Shown: positions 25,983 through 31,649 of the stretch, one piece after another | How positions within the stretch are numbered: the first letter of the stretch is position 1 | Layout: each line of letters starts with the position of its first letter | Assembly (NCBI RefSeq): GCF_003298505.1 | Contig: NZ_QNGB01000004.1 | Location: 96,001-160,000, forward strand | Direction: 5' to 3' | DNA length: 64,000 nucleotides | Source: Roseovarius sp. TE539 | Lineage (GTDB): Bacteria > Pseudomonadota > Alphaproteobacteria > Rhodobacterales > Rhodobacteraceae | Made by a program: the position numbers and the translations under genes | Notes under the pieces: generated by a model | What the model saw: only the letters and a program-made list of their open reading frames with translations | Databases searched by the model: none | Told to the model about the DNA's origin: nothing

Positions 25983-26930
25983 TCAGGAGGCGGCATTTCG
26001 ACCCAACGGCAGGTTCCTTGGCAGTGTCGGCGCGGGCAAGATCCGCGACCATCGCGGATCCGGGCGCTCCGGCAGCACGGCACGCAACCGTGCCAGCGGC
26101 ATCTGCCGGCTCTGGCGCAGCAGTGCCCGGTAGAAATCGAACACGCCGGGCCGCAGATACGAAGACCAGTGGCAGATCCGCGCCGATGGCGGCGCGATCA
26201 CGTATCCGGCCCGGTCCAGTGCCTCCAGCGTGCCGTGATGATCCATCTGCACTGTCAGGGTGTTGGGCCGGCGCGGCAGTGTATGGCTCATCATCCTGTC
26301 ACCGGGTTCCGGGGCTGCGATCAACCGCTCCATCATGAAATCGAACAGATCGTTCTCGCGGCTTGTGATGTTGATCACGTCGGCTGTGCGACCGGCCCCG
26401 CACGAAAGTGCGTCGCTTGCCGTGGCGCCGTATTCGGCTCCTGCCAGCAGGATGACGCGGTCCACGTCACCCGCGTTCAGTCGGCGCAACGCAGTCAGTA
26501 CAACACGCGCGCCCAGCGAATGCGCAAGGGCATGAATCGGGCGGGCGGGCGCGATCCGGCGGATGGCGGCGATAACCCGCGCCAGCGCGTCGCCAGCCTG
26601 CTCGGCCCGGTCATAGGCCCGCCAGATCGAGCCGCGGGCCGGCCAGCCGAATGCGATACCCAGCCCCTCGTCCGGTGCGCCGGCGCCAAACCCCAAGCCT
26701 CGCGGCCAGCTAAGCGCCTTCCAGCAGCCTGCCCGAGGGCTCAGTGACAATATGTGCCGATGCGGGCAGGTCGCTGCGCTGCCGGGACAAAACTTGAACC
26801 CGTGAACCATGACGATGATCGGTCCGGAAGGATCGGTATCAAGTGCCCGGACCAGAGCGGGATTCAGTGGTGCGTGATTTGCGCCCGGCTCCGGCCCGTC
26901 CCGTCCCGCGTTGACCTGTAAAAGAGGCAT
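25983..26930 (-). CDS. Alpha/beta-hydrolase-fold protein (DUF900/esterase-like)
   Basis: A 315-residue protein with an alpha/beta-hydrolase core. An oxyanion-type strand (IIVMVHGFKF) is followed by the nucleophile elbow AHSLGARVVL (Ser in G-x-S-like AHSLG) and a probable acid region in NITSRENDLFDFM; the C-terminal histidine may be in ARICHWSSYL. Substrate unknown; no signal peptide is evident, so cytoplasmic. The start at 26930 (MPLLQVNAG) has AGGG just upstream; a 42-codon longer frame runs into the metZ regulatory region and was rejected. It is divergent from metZ, with 254 bp between them. Confidence 0.78.
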   Translation of the reverse strand: MPLLQVNAGRDGPEPGANHAPLNPALVRALDTDPSGPIIVMVHGFKFCPGSAATCPHRHILSLSPRAGCWKALSWPRGLGFGAGAPDEGLGIAFGWPARGSIWRAYDRAEQAGDALARVIAAIRRIAPARPIHALAHSLGARVVLTALRRLNAGDVDRVILLAGAEYGATASDALSCGAGRTADVINITSRENDLFDFMMERLIAAPEPGDRMMSHTLPRRPNTLTVQMDHHGTLEALDRAGYVIAPPSARICHWSSYLRPGVFDFYRALLRQSRQMPLARLRAVLPERPDPRWSRILPAPTLPRNLPLGRNAAS

Positions 26931-27020
26931 CGCCCTGCTCTCCCACCACATCTTGTGTAGAGCGCTTAGGCGAACCATACGAAGCTCTTGTGAAGCTATG
27001 GTTAAAGGCTGGTGACGGTG

Positions 27021-27050
27021 TTGACGCGCAACACCCCCGAGGCTAAGAAT
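27021..27050 (+). promoter_or_regulatory. Probable sigma-70 promoter of metZ
   Basis: TTGACG at 27021-27026 is followed after 17-18 bp by TAAGAA/AAGAAT (27044-27050). Transcription would begin near 27056, exactly at the first stem of the SAM-II aptamer, which supports the call even though the -10 is imperfect. Confidence 0.55.
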
Positions 27051-27056
27051 TTCCAT

Positions 27057-27110
27057 GTGGCGATTTGTTAACCGGATTGCGGGCCACGTTAAACAACACC
27101 GCTAAAGAGG
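27057..27110 (+). ncRNA. SAM-II riboswitch aptamer
   Basis: The sequence matches the SAM-II consensus block by block: P1 5' strand GTGGC (27057-27061), loop GATTTGTTAACCGGATTGC beginning at 27062, P1 3' strand GCCAC (27083-27087), then GTTAAAC, and the 3' pseudoknot strand GCTAAAGAGG (27101-27110). The well-studied metagenomic metX aptamer has the same GATTT-AACCG-ATTGC and GCTAAA elements. SAM-II binds S-adenosylmethionine and shuts down methionine-synthesis genes in alphaproteobacteria. Its 3' end doubles as a ribosome-binding-site-like AAAGAGG in front of an ATG at 27116, and is followed by a terminator. Confidence 0.93.
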
Positions 27111-27124
27111 TCAGGATGAAGGAG

Positions 27125-27157
27125 CCCCTTTCGCTTGACCGCGACAGGGGTTTTTTT
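27125..27157 (+). terminator. Intrinsic terminator in the metZ leader
   Basis: CCCCT-T-TCGC, loop TTGACC, GCGA-C-AGGGG, then seven T residues (27151-27157): a textbook hairpin interrupted by one T/C mismatch. It lies 28 bp before the metZ ATG, so it must be passed to express the gene. The 3' strand of the aptamer (AAAGAGG) can pair with CCCCTTT at the base of this hairpin with one mismatch, giving a possible antiterminator. Confidence 0.85.
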
Positions 27158-27184
27158 GTCGGGCCACGGCCCTGGAGGACGGAC

Positions 27185-28381
27185 ATGAAGAAGGACATCG
27201 ACGAAAGTTGGCAGGACCGCACGAAACTGGTCCATGGTGGCACGCGGCGCAGCGCCTATAACGAGGTGAGCGAGGCGATCTTCCTGACTCAGGGTTTCGT
27301 GTATGACAGCGCGGCCCAGGCCGAGGCCCGTTTCGTTGGCGCCGGTGATGATGAATTTATCTATGCCCGTTACGGCAACCCCACCGTTGCCATGTTCGAG
27401 GATCGGATAGCCGCCATCGAAGGGGCCGAGGATGCGTTCGCCACTGCGTCGGGCATGGCCGCTGTCTCCGGCGCGCTGACCGCGATGCTGCGGGCAGGCG
27501 ATCATGTCGTCGCCTCGCGGGCGCTCTTCGGGTCATGCCTCTATGTTCTGGAGGAGATCCTGACCCGCTTTGGCGTCGAGGTCAGCTTCGTGGACGGAAC
27601 CGATCTTGCACAATGGCGCGCGGCCATGCGCCCCGGCACACGCGCGGTATTCTTCGAAACCATCGCCAACCCCACGCTGGAGGTGATCGACATCGCCGCG
27701 GTCGCGCAGATCGCCCACGATGCCGGCGCCACTGTGATCGTCGACAACGTTTTCGCCACGCCGATCTTCTCGGATGCCATCGCGCAGGGCGCCGATGTGG
27801 TGATCTATTCCGCCACGAAGCATATCGACGGGCAGGGGCGGGCCCTTGGCGGGGTTATTCTCGGATCCCGCGATTTCATCCGCGGCACGGTTGAACCCTA
27901 CATGAAGCATACCGGCGGCTCCATGTCGCCCTTTACCGCGTGGATCATGCTCAAGGGTTTGGAAACGATGGATCTGCGTGTGCGTGCGCAGGCGTCCTCG
28001 GCGCGGGCGTTGGCCGATGCGCTTGAGGGGCACAGCGCGCTTTCAAGGGTGATCTATCCCGGTCATCACGGACATGCGCAGCACGCCCTTGTCACCCGAC
28101 AGATGGGCGGCAATGGCGGTACGGTCGTTTCGCTTGACCTTGCCGGCGGGCGCCGGGCGGCCTTCGCGTTTCTCGACGCGTTGGGGCTGGTCCTGATCTC
28201 GAACAATCTGGGTGATGCGAAATCCATCGCCACCCATCCGTCAACCACCACCCATCAACGCCTGTCCGAGGAGCGTCGTGCCGCGCTCGGGATCACGCCG
28301 GGGTTGGTTCGACTGTCCGTCGGGATCGAGGATACTGCCGATATTATCGCGGATGTGACGCAGGCTCTCGGCACGGTGTGA
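27185..28381 (+). CDS. metZ: O-succinylhomoserine sulfhydrylase (PLP enzyme)
   Basis: A 398-residue Cys/Met-metabolism PLP enzyme making homocysteine directly from O-succinyl (or O-acetyl) homoserine and sulfide. Family blocks: LVHGGTRRSAYNEVSEAIFLTQGFVYD, the Tyr/Arg region YARYGNPTV, a PLP-stacking segment ASGMAAVSGALTAML, and the PLP lysine in YSATKHIDGQGRALGG. The start at 27185 has GGAGG upstream and gives the normal N-terminus. The frame is open back to the aptamer, so starting at ATG 27116 would add 23 residues; this may be a leader or an alternative start. Control by the SAM-II element fits methionine biosynthesis. Confidence 0.94.
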   Translation: MKKDIDESWQDRTKLVHGGTRRSAYNEVSEAIFLTQGFVYDSAAQAEARFVGAGDDEFIYARYGNPTVAMFEDRIAAIEGAEDAFATASGMAAVSGALTAMLRAGDHVVASRALFGSCLYVLEEILTRFGVEVSFVDGTDLAQWRAAMRPGTRAVFFETIANPTLEVIDIAAVAQIAHDAGATVIVDNVFATPIFSDAIAQGADVVIYSATKHIDGQGRALGGVILGSRDFIRGTVEPYMKHTGGSMSPFTAWIMLKGLETMDLRVRAQASSARALADALEGHSALSRVIYPGHHGHAQHALVTRQMGGNGGTVVSLDLAGGRRAAFAFLDALGLVLISNNLGDAKSIATHPSTTTHQRLSEERRAALGITPGLVRLSVGIEDTADIIADVTQALGTV

Positions 28382-28396
28382 GACAGGCCCGGCGGT

Positions 28397-29104
28397 TCAG
28401 AACCGCTCCACCCACGGCCTGAGGGTCAACTCATCCGACCACGCCGAGCGGTCCTGTTCGGCAAGCTGAAGATAGGCCGCGGCGATGGCGTCGGGGTCTA
28501 GCATGCTGTCGGGGTTGTCCGAGGGCTCTGTCCGGCCCGGATTTCGAATGGCGCCGTCGATGTTGATCCATACGACGTGAATGCCCTGCGGATGCAGCTC
28601 CCGCGCCATCGACTGCGCAAGGCCGCGTTGCGCGAACTTGCCCATCGCGAAGGGCGCTGAGCGGGGAAATCCCTTCACTCCCGCCGAGGCGCCGGTCATC
28701 ATTATGGTGCCGCGCGTCCCGTCCCTCGGGTCGGTGGCCAGCATGTGCGCCGCCGCTGCCTGTCCGACATGGAATGCGCCAATTGCCGTGACCTCCAGGG
28801 CCCGGCGCACGGCGTCCGGATCAAGTTCGACAAGCGCCCCGCGCACCCGCGCCGACGGGTTGTAGATCACCACGCGCGGCGCCTCCGCGAGTCCTGCGAA
28901 AAACGCCGAGACGGAAGTTGCATCGGCGGCGTCGAGCGACTTGCGCGCCGCGCCGGTTTCAACCGCCAGTGCCTCCAGCTTTGCAATGTCCCGCGCCGCC
29001 AGCGTCAGGGCATATTCCGCCGCCGCGAAGCGCCGCGCCAGCGCCGCCGACAGGCCGTCCCCGACACCGACGATCACCGCGTGACCTTTCGCAGCCTCAG
29101 TCAA
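28397..29104 (-). CDS. Short-chain dehydrogenase/reductase-like protein, TTG start
   Basis: A 235-residue SDR-like protein. The cofactor turn is VGVGDGLSAALARRFAAAEY, a variant of TGxxxGIG; strand 2 ends ARDIAK. The active-site serine lies in MMTGASAGVKG, but the expected Tyr of YxxxK is replaced: the segment reads APFAMGKFAQRGLAQSM, so the position of the catalytic tyrosine is phenylalanine or methionine while the lysine remains. This could make it a non-catalytic or altered SDR. TTG at 29104 overlaps the stop of the DUF1285 gene and has AGGAGA at good distance; there is no better ATG. Substrate unknown. Confidence 0.78.
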   Translation of the reverse strand: MTEAAKGHAVIVGVGDGLSAALARRFAAAEYALTLAARDIAKLEALAVETGAARKSLDAADATSVSAFFAGLAEAPRVVIYNPSARVRGALVELDPDAVRRALEVTAIGAFHVGQAAAAHMLATDPRDGTRGTIMMTGASAGVKGFPRSAPFAMGKFAQRGLAQSMARELHPQGIHVVWINIDGAIRNPGRTEPSDNPDSMLDPDAIAAAYLQLAEQDRSAWSDELTLRPWVERF

Positions 29105-29678
29105 CGTCCATCTCCTCTGACGGGATGACACGGAAGAACTCTCCGCCCGACCACAGTCCGAACCAGCCATCGCGATGGCCCCCGATTTCCACCAGGCGGT
29201 AGAAACTCTTGCGGTCAATGAGCGCCTCCAGCCGGTCGCGGACCAGAACGTAGGGCGAAGGTTCGCCGGTATCGCCGTCACGTTCGACCCGAATCGGATG
29301 GTCGGGTCCGGCAACCATACGGTCGCCGACATTGGTCTCGAAGATCAGCTCTTGGGCGTCTCCGCTGCCTTCCGCCTCGAAATCCACAGCTACGAAAGGG
29401 GCGTCGTCCACCGTTATCCCGACCTTCTCGACCGGGGTGACGAGGAAATAATCCTCTCCGTCCCGCCTCAGGATGGTCGAGAACAGCCGCACCAGACCCG
29501 GCCGTTCGATCGGGCTGCCAAGATAGAACCACCGGCCGTCCCGCGCGATCCGCATATCCATGTCGCCGCTGAAGTCCGGCGTCCACTCGTGGACGGGTGG
29601 GAGGCCCTTGTCCTGAGCGGCGCGCGCTGCCTCTGCCAGGCTTTCGGCTGACGGGGTTGTGAGATTTTCTCCGCTCAT
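29097..29678 (-). CDS. DUF1285 family protein
   Basis: A 193-residue cytoplasmic protein of the DUF1285 family. The pattern PPVHEWTPDFSGDMDMRIARDGRWFYLGSPIERPGLVRLFSTILRRDGEDYFLVTPVEKVGITVDDAPFVAV is characteristic, as is the FETNVGDRMVAGPDHPIRV block. Function is unknown. The start is uncertain: ATGs at 29747, 29699, 29690 and 29678 are all in frame. I chose 29678 (MSGENLTTPSAES) because it gives a compact N-terminus and leaves room for the divergent moxR promoter; 29747 would overlap that gene. The stop overlaps the TTG of the SDR-like gene. Confidence 0.85.
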   Translation of the reverse strand: MSGENLTTPSAESLAEAARAAQDKGLPPVHEWTPDFSGDMDMRIARDGRWFYLGSPIERPGLVRLFSTILRRDGEDYFLVTPVEKVGITVDDAPFVAVDFEAEGSGDAQELIFETNVGDRMVAGPDHPIRVERDGDTGEPSPYVLVRDRLEALIDRKSFYRLVEIGGHRDGWFGLWSGGEFFRVIPSEEMDVD

Positions 29679-29745
29679 TGCTTTTGCCATTTCCTTCATG
29701 CGCGATACACTCAAGGGTACATAGGGCTCAGACAGGAGTTTTGCC

Positions 29746-30753
29746 ATGACCGATCAATCCGATCTGCTGGCCGGGATCGAGGCGCTGGAGGACCGGCTCG
29801 CCGAAGCTCGGGCGTCGATCACGCGCCGTTTCATCGGGCAGGAACGGGTCGTGGACCTGACATTGTCGGCGGTTCTTTGCGGCGGTCACGGTCTCTTGGT
29901 CGGTCTGCCCGGCCTTGGCAAGACGCGGCTGGTCGAAACCGTCGCCACCGTGATGGGGCTGGCCTCAAACCGGATACAGTTTACGCCCGATCTGATGCCG
30001 GCCGACATCCTTGGCTCCGAGGTGCTGGAAACCGGACACGACGGCGCACGCGCCTTCAAGTTCATTCCCGGCCCGGTCTTCTGCCAGCTTCTGATGGCCG
30101 ACGAGATCAATCGCGCCAGTCCCCGCACCCAGTCCGCCCTTCTGCAGGCCATGCAGGAACGTCAGGTCACAGTGGCTGGCGAGGATCGCGCCCTGACCCC
30201 GCCCTTTCATGTTCTGGCCACGCAGAATCCGATCGAGCAGGAAGGCACCTATCCCTTGCCCGAAGCACAGCTCGACAGGTTCCTGGTACAGATCGACGTG
30301 GATTATCCGGACCGCGGTACCGAGCGTGACATCCTGCTGGCCACCACCGGGTCGGAGGACGCGGAGTCACACCGTATTTTCGCTGCAGAGGAATTGATCG
30401 AGGCACAAGAACTGCTGCGCCGCATGCCCGTGGGCGAGGCGGTACTGGAACAGATCCTTGATCTGGTGCGCGCGTTCCGCCCCGATGACGACTCCGCCGG
30501 GCAGCGGGTGCGCGACAGCGTCGCCTGGGGTCCGGGCCCGCGCGCCGCCCAGGCACTGATGCTCACGGTGCGGGCCCGTGCGATGCTGCACGGCCGTCTT
30601 GCCCCCGATGCCGAGGACGTGGCGGCGATGGCCCAACCGGTCCTGATTCACCGTATGGCGCTCAATTTCGCGGCTCGCGCCCGCGGCGAAAGCCTGCCCG
30701 ATCTCATCGCCGCGACCGTTAACCATGTCACCCGTGCCGAGGCCGCCGCTTGA
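29746..30753 (+). CDS. MoxR-family AAA+ ATPase
   Basis: A 335-residue MoxR-type AAA+ ATPase. Walker A is GLPGLGKTRLVE, Walker B is LLMADEINRASP, sensor 1 is VLATQNPIEQEGTYPLPEAQLDRF, and the lid domain follows (about 225-330). MoxR ATPases act with von Willebrand A or DUF58 proteins as chaperones that mature or insert metal into partner proteins, often at the cell envelope. It leads a four-gene chain of overlapping genes (MoxR, DUF58, BatA/DUF4159, large membrane protein). The TGA stop overlaps the TTG start of the DUF58 gene. The client protein is unknown. Confidence 0.93.
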   Translation: MTDQSDLLAGIEALEDRLAEARASITRRFIGQERVVDLTLSAVLCGGHGLLVGLPGLGKTRLVETVATVMGLASNRIQFTPDLMPADILGSEVLETGHDGARAFKFIPGPVFCQLLMADEINRASPRTQSALLQAMQERQVTVAGEDRALTPPFHVLATQNPIEQEGTYPLPEAQLDRFLVQIDVDYPDRGTERDILLATTGSEDAESHRIFAAEELIEAQELLRRMPVGEAVLEQILDLVRAFRPDDDSAGQRVRDSVAWGPGPRAAQALMLTVRARAMLHGRLAPDAEDVAAMAQPVLIHRMALNFAARARGESLPDLIAATVNHVTRAEAAA

Positions 30754-31649
30754 CATCACAGGACACCCCCCTCCGCGCCCGCTCCGAGGCCGAGGCCGGG
30801 CGCCTTCCGCCACTGCTGGCCCGGGCCGAGCATCTGGCCGGGGCCGTACTGCTTGGTGAACACGGCCGGCGCCGCGCCGGGCTTGGAGATGATTTCTGGC
30901 AGTACCGGCCGGTGCAGCCCGGCGACTCGCGCCGTATGATCGATTGGCGCAGGTCCGCGCGGAGCGACGCGCAATTCGTGCGTGAACGTGAATGGCAGAT
31001 TGCCCAGAGCGTCATGCTCTGGGTGGACGGTGGGGCATCCATGCGCTTCACCTCCGACAAGACACTGCCGGAGAAGGCCGATCGCGCGCGCCTACTTTCG
31101 CTTGCCGTGGCGGTGCTGCTCAACCGTGGCGGGGAACGCGTCGGCCTCACCGGGGCGGCGCTGCCGCCGCGCCGGGGCGAAGCACAGATCGCCCGCCTGG
31201 CCGCGGCTCTGGTCCTCGAGGATGGTGCAAGCGACTATGCCAGTCCCGACACGCGAGGCCTGCCGCCCTATGGCCGGGCGCTCTTCGTTTCGGATTTCCT
31301 GGGTGATTTCGATCCCGTGCGCCGGGCCCTCACCGAGGCGGCGGATCGTGGCGTGCAAGGCCTGATTCTGCAGACACTCGATCCGGCGGAAGAGGCATTT
31401 CCGTATCGTGGCCGCACTATCTTCGAATCTGTTGGCGGGACGATGGCGCATGAAACCCTCAAGGCCAGCGACCTGCGCGCGCGGTATGTGGCGCGGCTTG
31501 CCGCCCGCAAGGACGAGCTGGCGGCTCTCGCCTCGGCGACCGGCTGGCAGTATCACTGCCATCACACCTCCGAAAGCCCGCAATCGGCGCTTTTGTGGCT
31601 TTACCGCGCGTTCGACCGCGGCTCCGTTGCCGGAGGGTCCGGTACATGA
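30750..31649 (+). CDS. DUF58 domain protein, TTG start
   Basis: A 299-residue protein of the DUF58 family, a relative of von Willebrand A domains that accompanies MoxR ATPases. Diagnostic segments are DDFWQYRPVQPGDSRRMIDWRRSARSDAQFVREREWQ and the vWA-like VMLWVDGGASMRF, which retains D and S of a degenerate metal-ion adhesion site (DGGAS). No membrane helix is visible. TTG at 30750 overlaps the moxR stop (TTGA) and no nearby ATG/GTG fits, so it is translationally coupled. Probable adaptor between MoxR and its client or the membrane partners downstream. Confidence 0.9.
   Translation: MTSQDTPLRARSEAEAGRLPPLLARAEHLAGAVLLGEHGRRRAGLGDDFWQYRPVQPGDSRRMIDWRRSARSDAQFVREREWQIAQSVMLWVDGGASMRFTSDKTLPEKADRARLLSLAVAVLLNRGGERVGLTGAALPPRRGEAQIARLAAALVLEDGASDYASPDTRGLPPYGRALFVSDFLGDFDPVRRALTEAADRGVQGLILQTLDPAEEAFPYRGRTIFESVGGTMAHETLKASDLRARYVARLAARKDELAALASATGWQYHCHHTSESPQSALLWLYRAFDRGSVAGGSGT

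What the first reader, a model, noticed from the sequence alone, without database searches (positions are those of the whole stretch)
27021..27184. SAM-II riboswitch coupled to an intrinsic terminator, with a possible antiterminator
The aptamer begins at the predicted transcription start and is followed 15 bp later by a hairpin with seven T residues. AAAGAGG, the 3' pseudoknot strand of SAM-II, can pair with CCCCTTT in the terminator stem. With SAM bound the strand is occupied and the terminator can form; without SAM it can disrupt the terminator. SAM-II is usually thought to act by hiding the ribosome-binding site; this leader appears able to do both, because AAAGAGG also lies before an in-frame ATG (27116).
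Basis: partly seen in the sequence, partly recalled or inferred. Interest (0 to 1): 0.7.

Follow-up and report, generated by a model that had tools for sequence, protein, structure and literature searches.

The report
SAM-sensing off-switch before metZ
The start of the metZ message in this bacterium carries the sequence of a SAM-II riboswitch, a known kind of RNA sensor, and it is predicted to stop transcription when SAM is plentiful by breaking up an RNA hairpin that would otherwise block a stop signal; this is ordinary in kind, but the predicted hairpin is not the one first proposed, and the suggested extra translation switch is not supported.

Summary
A SAM-II aptamer (RF00521, 58.9 bits, cut-off 36; 27047-27126) precedes metZ (start 27185) and is followed by an intrinsic terminator (27123-27157). 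A different hairpin dominates: CGC:GCG, GGUCAGG:CUUGACC and GAAGG:CCUUU (27100-27143, -16.6 kcal/mol), built on aptamer segments that bound SAM would occupy. With these free it holds at 93-100% until RNA to 27154 is exposed; with them blocked the terminator forms at 94-100% from 27150. A like hairpin folds in 182 of 186 terminator-bearing relatives, and the modelled switch exceeds shuffled controls. Covariation is modest: present in a hand-picked class subset, weak in the genus, absent in a mixed alignment. ATG 27116 shows no frame bias in relatives and metZ has its own ribosome site, so dual control is unsupported. SAM-II terminators have been reported since 2005, and a predicted metZ terminator/antiterminator in Gluconobacter. 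New member of a known kind; nothing was tested at the bench.

The parts
27021..27050 (+). predicted promoter: TTGACG (27021-27026) and a weak -10-like AAGAAT (27045-27050) or TAAGAA (27044-27049)
   Evidence: consensus scan; TTGAC kept at this place in 51 of 51 genus loci; no transcription start measured
27047..27126 (+). SAM-II (SAM_alpha, RF00521) aptamer as matched by Rfam
   Evidence: 58.9 bits, gathering 36
27055..27089 (+). aptamer stem P1: 27055-27061 pairs with 27083-27089
   Evidence: folds
27071..27111 (+). pseudoknot segments read from the sequence: ACC 27071-27073 with GGU 27109-27111, and GCGG 27079-27082 with CCGC 27099-27102
   Evidence: read by me from sequence and the Rfam alignment; not folded by a pseudoknot program; a pair of the second kind, extendable to a short helix, is suggested in PMC2258182 (passage)
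27100..27143 (+). predicted antiterminator hairpin: CGC 27100-27102 with GCG 27141-27143; GGUCAGG 27109-27115 with CUUGACC 27134-27140; GAAGG 27118-27122 with CCUUU 27127-27131
   Evidence: -16.6 kcal/mol; relatives
27123..27157 (+). predicted intrinsic terminator: stem 27125-27129 with 27146-27150 and 27131-27134 with 27141-27144, then seven T
   Evidence: present; no frame bias in relatives
27174..27179 (+). GGAGGA, the likely ribosome-binding site of metZ, outside the aptamer
   Evidence: a comparable site in 46 of 48 genus loci
27185..28381 (+). metZ, O-succinylhomoserine sulfhydrylase, 398 aa; start codon predicted
   Evidence: TIGR01325 545.7 bits over cut-off 510.05

Best explanation
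This is a SAM-II riboswitch that is predicted to turn metZ off by transcription termination, through competition between the SAM-bound aptamer and an antiterminator hairpin. When SAM is scarce, the aptamer's 3' strand (CGC 27100-27102 and GGU 27109-27111) is free and would pair, with its extension CAGG, into the downstream CUUGACC-GCG; a short inner helix GAAGG:CCUUU closes the hairpin. This takes the inner stem, the loop and part of the outer 5' arm of the terminator, so polymerase would pass the U-tract. When SAM is bound, CCGC and GGU would be held in the pseudoknot, the antiterminator could not form, and the terminator would stop the transcript near 27157. Full-length message would be translated from metZ's own ribosome site. 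Shown: the Rfam match, the gene family, the computed pairing energies and their conservation. Inferred: SAM binding, the timing, and termination itself.
For: Aptamer and gene. Partition-function folding of growing transcripts at 37 C: with the strand free, antiterminator 0.99-1.00 for the ends tested from 27146 to 27152, 0.93 at 27154, 0.62 at 27156, terminator 0.83 at 27158; with 27099-27111 blocked, terminator 0.94 at 27150 and 1.00 at 27152. Blocking only GGU gives 0.93 and 1.00; only CCGC 0.02 and 0.67; only UAAAGA 0.01 and 0.13; an unrelated stretch 27090-27098 0.00 and 0.01; results at 25 and 30 C are similar (first seen). Relatives: at least 5 pairs from the aptamer strand into the terminator arm in 46 of 48 genus, 75 of 77 family and 61 of 61 class loci with terminators (no shuffled control for this count); energies give mean z -2.0, -1.5, -1.7. 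Modelled switch above 0.5 in 43 of 48, 53 of 77 and 32 of 59, against 88 of 240, 98 of 385 and 39 of 295 trials with the strand shuffled. Cognate strand-arm pairs bind better than permuted ones: 179, 0 and 7 of 10000 permutations as good, on 27, 70 and 57 distinct loci. Genus-type alignment: GGUCAGG:CUUGACC helix 94.6% paired (these 58 leaders were chosen by arm motifs). Class alignment of 34 leaders picked by me from 55: 90.3% paired, covariation score reached by 1 of 500 shuffles. Parallels: the SAM-II before the same gene in Gluconobacter oxydans has 20-fold higher leader than gene coverage (PMC5756330, passages), and S. meliloti metZ makes a ~100-nt leader RNA that is higher, with lower metZ mRNA, in the high-SAM medium (PMC9373788, section 6).
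Against: At full length the terminator wins even without a block, so the switch must act during transcription. The pseudoknot and SAM were mimicked by forbidding pairs, not modelled. Duplex-only shuffles show little: p <= 0.05 in 2 of 48 genus, 12 of 77 family, 24 of 61 class loci. The inner helix is weak on its own: mean z -0.85 over 58 leaders. The genus-type alignment has one pair with two-sided change and its covariation score is reached by 28 of 500 shuffles; the mixed alignment of 61 shows no excess (183 of 500) and more two-sided changes when slid by one column (14 cells against 6); in the class alignment a slide by one also gives more pairs with two-sided change (4 against 2), though only 57% paired. 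In 29 loci whose strand departs from GGTC, both bases pair in 14, against 15 after putting in TC. Five of 48 genus loci stay under a modelled switch of 0.5, and shuffled strands reach it in 88 of 240 genus trials. Relatives are not independent.
Confidence: 0.77

Rival explanations
1. One reading: AAAGAGG pairs with CCCCTTT as the antiterminator, and the same strand also controls translation from ATG 27116.
For: Sequences and frame are as described. In L018, with AAAAGG and CCTTTT, a pairing of this kind is in the best fold, and L003 has a perfect AAAGAGG:CCTCTTT in a duplex-only calculation, though its best hairpin is the other one.
Against: At most 0.06 pairing in the window over nascent ends 27131-27160; A.C mismatch; duplex -3.3 against -8.6 kcal/mol. 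ATG frames are random in relatives, and ATG is absent in 14 of 48 genus and 54 of 77 family loci.
Confidence: 0.05
2. The terminator is constitutive: it makes a leader RNA and lowers metZ at all SAM levels, and the aptamer acts on something else such as RNA stability, as proposed in part for S. meliloti metA.
For: Full-length folding favours the terminator regardless. In S. meliloti metA a terminator after SAM-II was not predicted to respond to SAM and no antiterminator could be predicted (PMC9373788, sections 5 and 11).
Against: A hairpin that joins the aptamer strand to the terminator arm folds here and in 182 of 186 terminator-bearing relatives, and the modelled switch is stronger than with shuffled strands. 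The S. meliloti metZ leader RNA is higher and its mRNA lower at high SAM.
Confidence: 0.12
3. Control is at translation: SAM hides the AGG of the aptamer, which acts as a ribosome site directly or at a distance.
For: A 2024 review files SAM-II under direct occlusion of the ribosome site (PMC10907184, passages). S. meliloti metA needs the aptamer's SD for a start 74 nt downstream (PMC9373788 abstract).
Against: metZ has GGAGGA 5 nt before its ATG; a site plus start after the terminator is found in 46 of 48 genus, 69 of 77 family and 41 of 53 class metZ loci, found with a loose pattern and without a matched control in that call.
Confidence: 0.06

Closest known systems
SAM-II riboswitch of metZ in Sinorhizobium meliloti (RZ leader RNA; PMC9373788: abstract, sections 5 and 6, part 1 of section 11, and passages seen)
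   Same: same aptamer class, same gene, predicted SAM-dependent terminator, leader RNA observed
   Different: its structure drawing is in a supplement I did not see; sequences not compared here
SAM-II leader of O-succinylhomoserine sulfhydrylase in Gluconobacter oxydans 621H (PMC5756330, passages)
   Same: same class and gene; the paper mentions a predicted terminator and antiterminator and 20-fold higher leader coverage
   Different: no base pairs given in the passages seen
metA motif / SAM-II as described by Corbino 2005 (PMC1273637, section 11 and passages)
   Same: P1 and pseudoknot P2, promoter just before P1, putative terminators in many members, off-switch logic
   Different: no antiterminator named in the main text searched ('antitermin' 0; 'mutually exclusive' 0, 'alternative' 0)
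S. meliloti metA SAM-II leader (PMC9373788)
   Same: aptamer, SD-like AGG, AUG1, terminator, in-frame AUG2 in the same order
   Different: there the distant SD is needed and no antiterminator could be predicted; here metZ has its own SD-like site and a predicted antiterminator
tandem SAM-II/SAM-V leaders (PMC9481103, passages)
   Same: SAM-II precedes a terminator
   Different: there a second aptamer is predicted to control translation; only one aptamer found here

Membership tests
SAM-II (SAM_alpha, RF00521) riboswitch aptamer | covariance-model score over the curated cut-off, full model length | tested here: met
   58.9 bits against 36, positions 1-79 of 79
SAM-II (SAM_alpha, RF00521) riboswitch aptamer | stem P1 and pseudoknot P2 | tested here: inconclusive
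   P1 of 7 pairs folds; pseudoknot segments ACC:GGU and GCGG:CCGC are present by eye, but P2 is short here and no pseudoknot folding was run
SAM-II (SAM_alpha, RF00521) riboswitch aptamer | located before a methionine or SAM synthesis gene | tested here: met
   metZ, TIGR01325 over cut-off
SAM-II (SAM_alpha, RF00521) riboswitch aptamer | binds SAM | not testable with these tools
   needs in-line probing or calorimetry
transcription-attenuation off-riboswitch | intrinsic terminator between aptamer and gene | tested here: met
   computed: 27123-27157
transcription-attenuation off-riboswitch | antiterminator that excludes both the terminator and the bound aptamer | tested here: met
   computed only; the bound aptamer was a pairing block
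transcription-attenuation off-riboswitch | SAM raises termination | not testable with these tools
   needs in vitro transcription
direct-occlusion (ribosome-site) SAM-II riboswitch | the gene's ribosome site lies in the aptamer | tested here: not met
   from sequence: GGAGGA at 27174-27179, about 60 nt after the aptamer's GGU; ATG 27116 has no frame bias in relatives; the metZ start is predicted, not measured

The most novel reading that the evidence does not exclude
Across metZ leaders of alphaproteobacteria SAM-II works mainly by strand exchange, not by hiding a ribosome site: one aptamer strand is claimed either by the SAM-bound pseudoknot or by an antiterminator that takes up the terminator's arm and loop, and in the wider class the terminator arm copies the pseudoknot's 5' strand. 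The Roseovarius leaders are the most decisive modelled version of this switch among the three sets compared.
Probability: 0.55. Interest if true: 0.5.

Novelty: new member of a known kind. Interest (0 to 1): 0.33.

Why it matters
A recent review files SAM-II under ribosome-site occlusion, yet 178 of 208 metZ leaders sampled here carry a terminator by my criterion, and nearly all of the terminator-bearing loci fold a hairpin that joins the aptamer strand to the terminator arm (182 of 186). The exact helices make the mechanism testable by point changes: CAGG (27112-27115) pairs in the predicted antiterminator but, by my reading, lies outside the short pseudoknot helix, so it could be altered without touching the SAM site.

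Tried and rejected
A ribosome starting at ATG 27116 and reading through the terminator as an antitermination device: my own idea, rejected because the ATG is not conserved and frames are random. The two duplex energies printed (-4.0 and -7.2) used strands shifted by one base; one search repeats them correctly (-3.3 and -8.6). Shuffling only the duplex partners gave little. A first count of ribosome sites (20 of 38 genus, 53 of 63 family, 45 of 51 class, with 10, 14 and 2 loci left without a start; random coding control 0.17) I judged to use a poor start window and replaced by a count that requires the metZ frame and no stop; both are given here. Terminator arm as a copy of the pseudoknot 5' strand: holds in the class set (0 of 5000 permutations as high) but not in genus (4815 of 5000) or family (4998 of 5000). 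Loci dropped: 5 of 231 without a recognisable core, 40 of 226 without a terminator by my threshold, two class loci without a GG anchor. Some loci without a counted terminator (L005, L011) look by eye as if they have one. Alignments used part of 166 distinct leaders: 58 of 58 of the window's type, which were sorted by arm motifs; 34 of 55 class leaders; 61 of 108 of the other types. Named relatives (best 80 kept of a capped scan): a SAM-II core was found by pattern in 69 of 80 and a simple terminator in 66; some are the same genomes as above, so they are no independent sample.

Full report
What is there. The window holds one Rfam match at gathering cut-off: SAM_alpha (SAM-II, RF00521) at 27047-27126 +, 58.9 bits, E 1.1e-10. 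It is the only match found in the genome (150 of 505 first-look candidates scored). The gene downstream is metZ, O-succinylhomoserine sulfhydrylase (TIGR01325, 545.7 bits, cut-off 510.05), with a predicted start at 27185 and GGAGGA at 27174-27179. Between them lies CCCCTTTCGC-TTGACC-GCGACAGGGG-TTTTTTT, an intrinsic terminator of -14.5 kcal/mol without and -21.7 with pairs to the U-tract. A -35-like TTGACG is at 27021, and TTGAC is kept at this place in 51 of 51 genus, 84 of 90 family and 68 of 85 class loci. The genus is very likely Roseovarius: contigs of the unnamed same-genus genomes G025 and G020 have the same lengths (79462 and 136162) as contigs of an uncultured Roseovarius and of Roseovarius lutimaris.

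AAAGAGG (27104-27110) and CCCCTTT (27125-27131) match at 6 of 7 positions with an A.C mismatch; the best duplex is -3.3 kcal/mol, against -8.6 for GGUCAGG:CUUGACC. In the ensemble of nascent transcripts ending at 27131-27160 no pair of the proposed helix exceeds 0.06.

The antiterminator. The same folding shows one dominant hairpin, 27100-27143: CGC with GCG, GGUCAGG with CUUGACC, and GAAGG with CCUUU around the loop AGCC, -16.6 kcal/mol. It consumes the inner stem and loop of the terminator and part of its outer 5' arm. Its 5' side contains CGC and GGU, which by my reading of the Rfam alignment are also 3' strands of the aptamer's pseudoknot (with GCGG 27079-27082 and ACC 27071-27073). With these segments free, the antiterminator keeps 0.99-1.00 to an exposed end of 27152 and 0.93 at 27154; the terminator overtakes at 27156-27157. 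With 27099-27111 forbidden to pair, a stand-in for bound SAM, the terminator is at 0.94 already at 27150. Blocking only GGU is enough (0.93); blocking only CCGC or only UAAAGA gives 0.02 and 0.01 at 27150, rising to 0.67 and 0.13 at 27152; blocking an unrelated stretch (27090-27098) gives 0.00 and 0.01. Folding at 25 and 30 C gives a similar picture. Because polymerase hides roughly the last dozen bases (general knowledge), RNA up to 27154 is exposed only when polymerase is past the U-tract; this timing step is inferred. At full length the terminator wins in both states, so the switch must act during transcription.

Relatives. SAM-II was found at E <= 0.001 in 56 of 60 genomes of the genus, 242 of 295 of the family and 198 of 386 of the class. 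From these, 231 loci were read: 91 given by the searches, which favour the best-scoring matches, and 140 chosen by me from the capped match lists. Of them 226 had a recognisable core and 208 of these metZ downstream. A terminator was found in 48 of 51 genus, 77 of 90 family and 61 of 85 class loci, 186 of 226 in all. In these the nascent segment folds with at least 5 pairs from the aptamer strand into the terminator arm in 46 of 48, 75 of 77 and 61 of 61 (a count without a shuffled control), and the folding energies have mean z of -2.0, -1.5 and -1.7 against dinucleotide shuffles. The modelled switch (terminator probability with minus without the block, largest over several ends) exceeds 0.5 in 43 of 48, 53 of 77 and 32 of 59; with the aptamer strand shuffled it does so in 88 of 240, 98 of 385 and 39 of 295 trials.

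Covariation. Evidence is real but modest. Cognate strand-arm pairs are better than permuted ones (179, 0 and 7 of 10000 permutations as good in genus, family, class); shared ancestry contributes. Composition shuffles of the arm alone give little: p <= 0.05 in 2 of 48, 12 of 77 and 24 of 61. In a class alignment of 34 leaders, picked by me from 55 as alignable, the helix is 90.3% paired, with 6 cells changed on both sides (2 of 500 shuffles reach this) and a covariation score reached by 1 of 500; sliding the partner by one column gives 57% paired but more pairs with two-sided change, 4 against 2. In the 58 leaders of the window's type, which were sorted by arm motifs, the main helix is 94.6% and the outer CGC:GCG helix 85.6% paired, but only one pair shows two-sided change and 28 of 500 shuffles match the score. 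The inner helix forms in the folds of these leaders but is weak, mean z -0.85. A mixed alignment of 61 shows no excess (77.2% paired; 183 of 500). Of 29 loci that depart from GGTC both bases pair in 14, no better than the 15 with TC put in. In native loci both bases after GG are paired in 54 of 59 class, 60 of 77 family and 39 of 48 genus, against 320 of 590, 345 of 770 and 273 of 480 swapped trials. Three-way changes are visible in single loci, such as L208, where pseudoknot 5' strand, aptamer 3' strand and terminator arm differ together from the common form.

The second start. ATG 27116 is in frame with metZ, but among terminator-bearing metZ loci an ATG at this place occurs in 34 of 48 genus loci with frames 13/11/10, in 23 of 77 family loci with frames 7/10/6 and in 5 of 51 class loci with frames 1/2/2. 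In frame and free of stops up to metZ are 11, 6 and 0 of these, the window among them. A Shine-Dalgarno-like site and start in the metZ frame after the terminator exist in 46 of 48, 69 of 77 and 41 of 53. Dual control is therefore not supported, though not excluded for this one leader.

What is known. Corbino 2005 stated that many members have putative terminators (PMC1273637, section 11). [quoted passage not shown] A 2014 study lists SAM_alpha in 14 of 15 Rhodobacterales genomes with metY as its core target (PMC4239095, passages); that its metY corresponds to the metZ here is my reading. In S. meliloti a ~100-nt metZ leader RNA is higher and metZ mRNA lower in the high-SAM medium (PMC9373788, section 6; sections 5 and 11 part 1 also read). 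In Gluconobacter the same arrangement showed 20-fold higher leader coverage, and the authors mention a predicted terminator and antiterminator (PMC5756330, passages). A 2024 review files the class under direct occlusion of the ribosome site (PMC10907184, passages). In my searches of open papers and the passages read I saw no printed base-pair model or comparative test of a SAM-II antiterminator; supplements, figures and subscription papers were not seen, and most listed papers were seen only as listings.

Verdict. A new member of a known kind, with a precise and testable model.

Noticed in passing
   Followed up: partly
class loci such as L062, L087, L208, L210: The terminator 5' arm repeats the pseudoknot 5' strand (for example CCGGCC or CCGGTC), so the aptamer strand has two like-sequenced partners; significant only in the class set.
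   Followed up: partly
L012, L015, L104 (genus): Leaders where GGTCAGG has become GGCGAAGC and the partner is GCTTGGCC, keeping most pairs around one mismatch.
   Followed up: partly
25983-26978 - strand: Divergent alpha/beta hydrolase (DUF900); its longest open frame runs to 27056, into the aptamer, so its start is probably further inside.
   Followed up: no
class genomes G610, G684, G722: Five SAM-II matches each, worth a look for shared regulons.
   Followed up: no
29097-31649: DUF1285 protein (- strand), MoxR-type ATPase and DUF58 protein next to each other.
   Followed up: no
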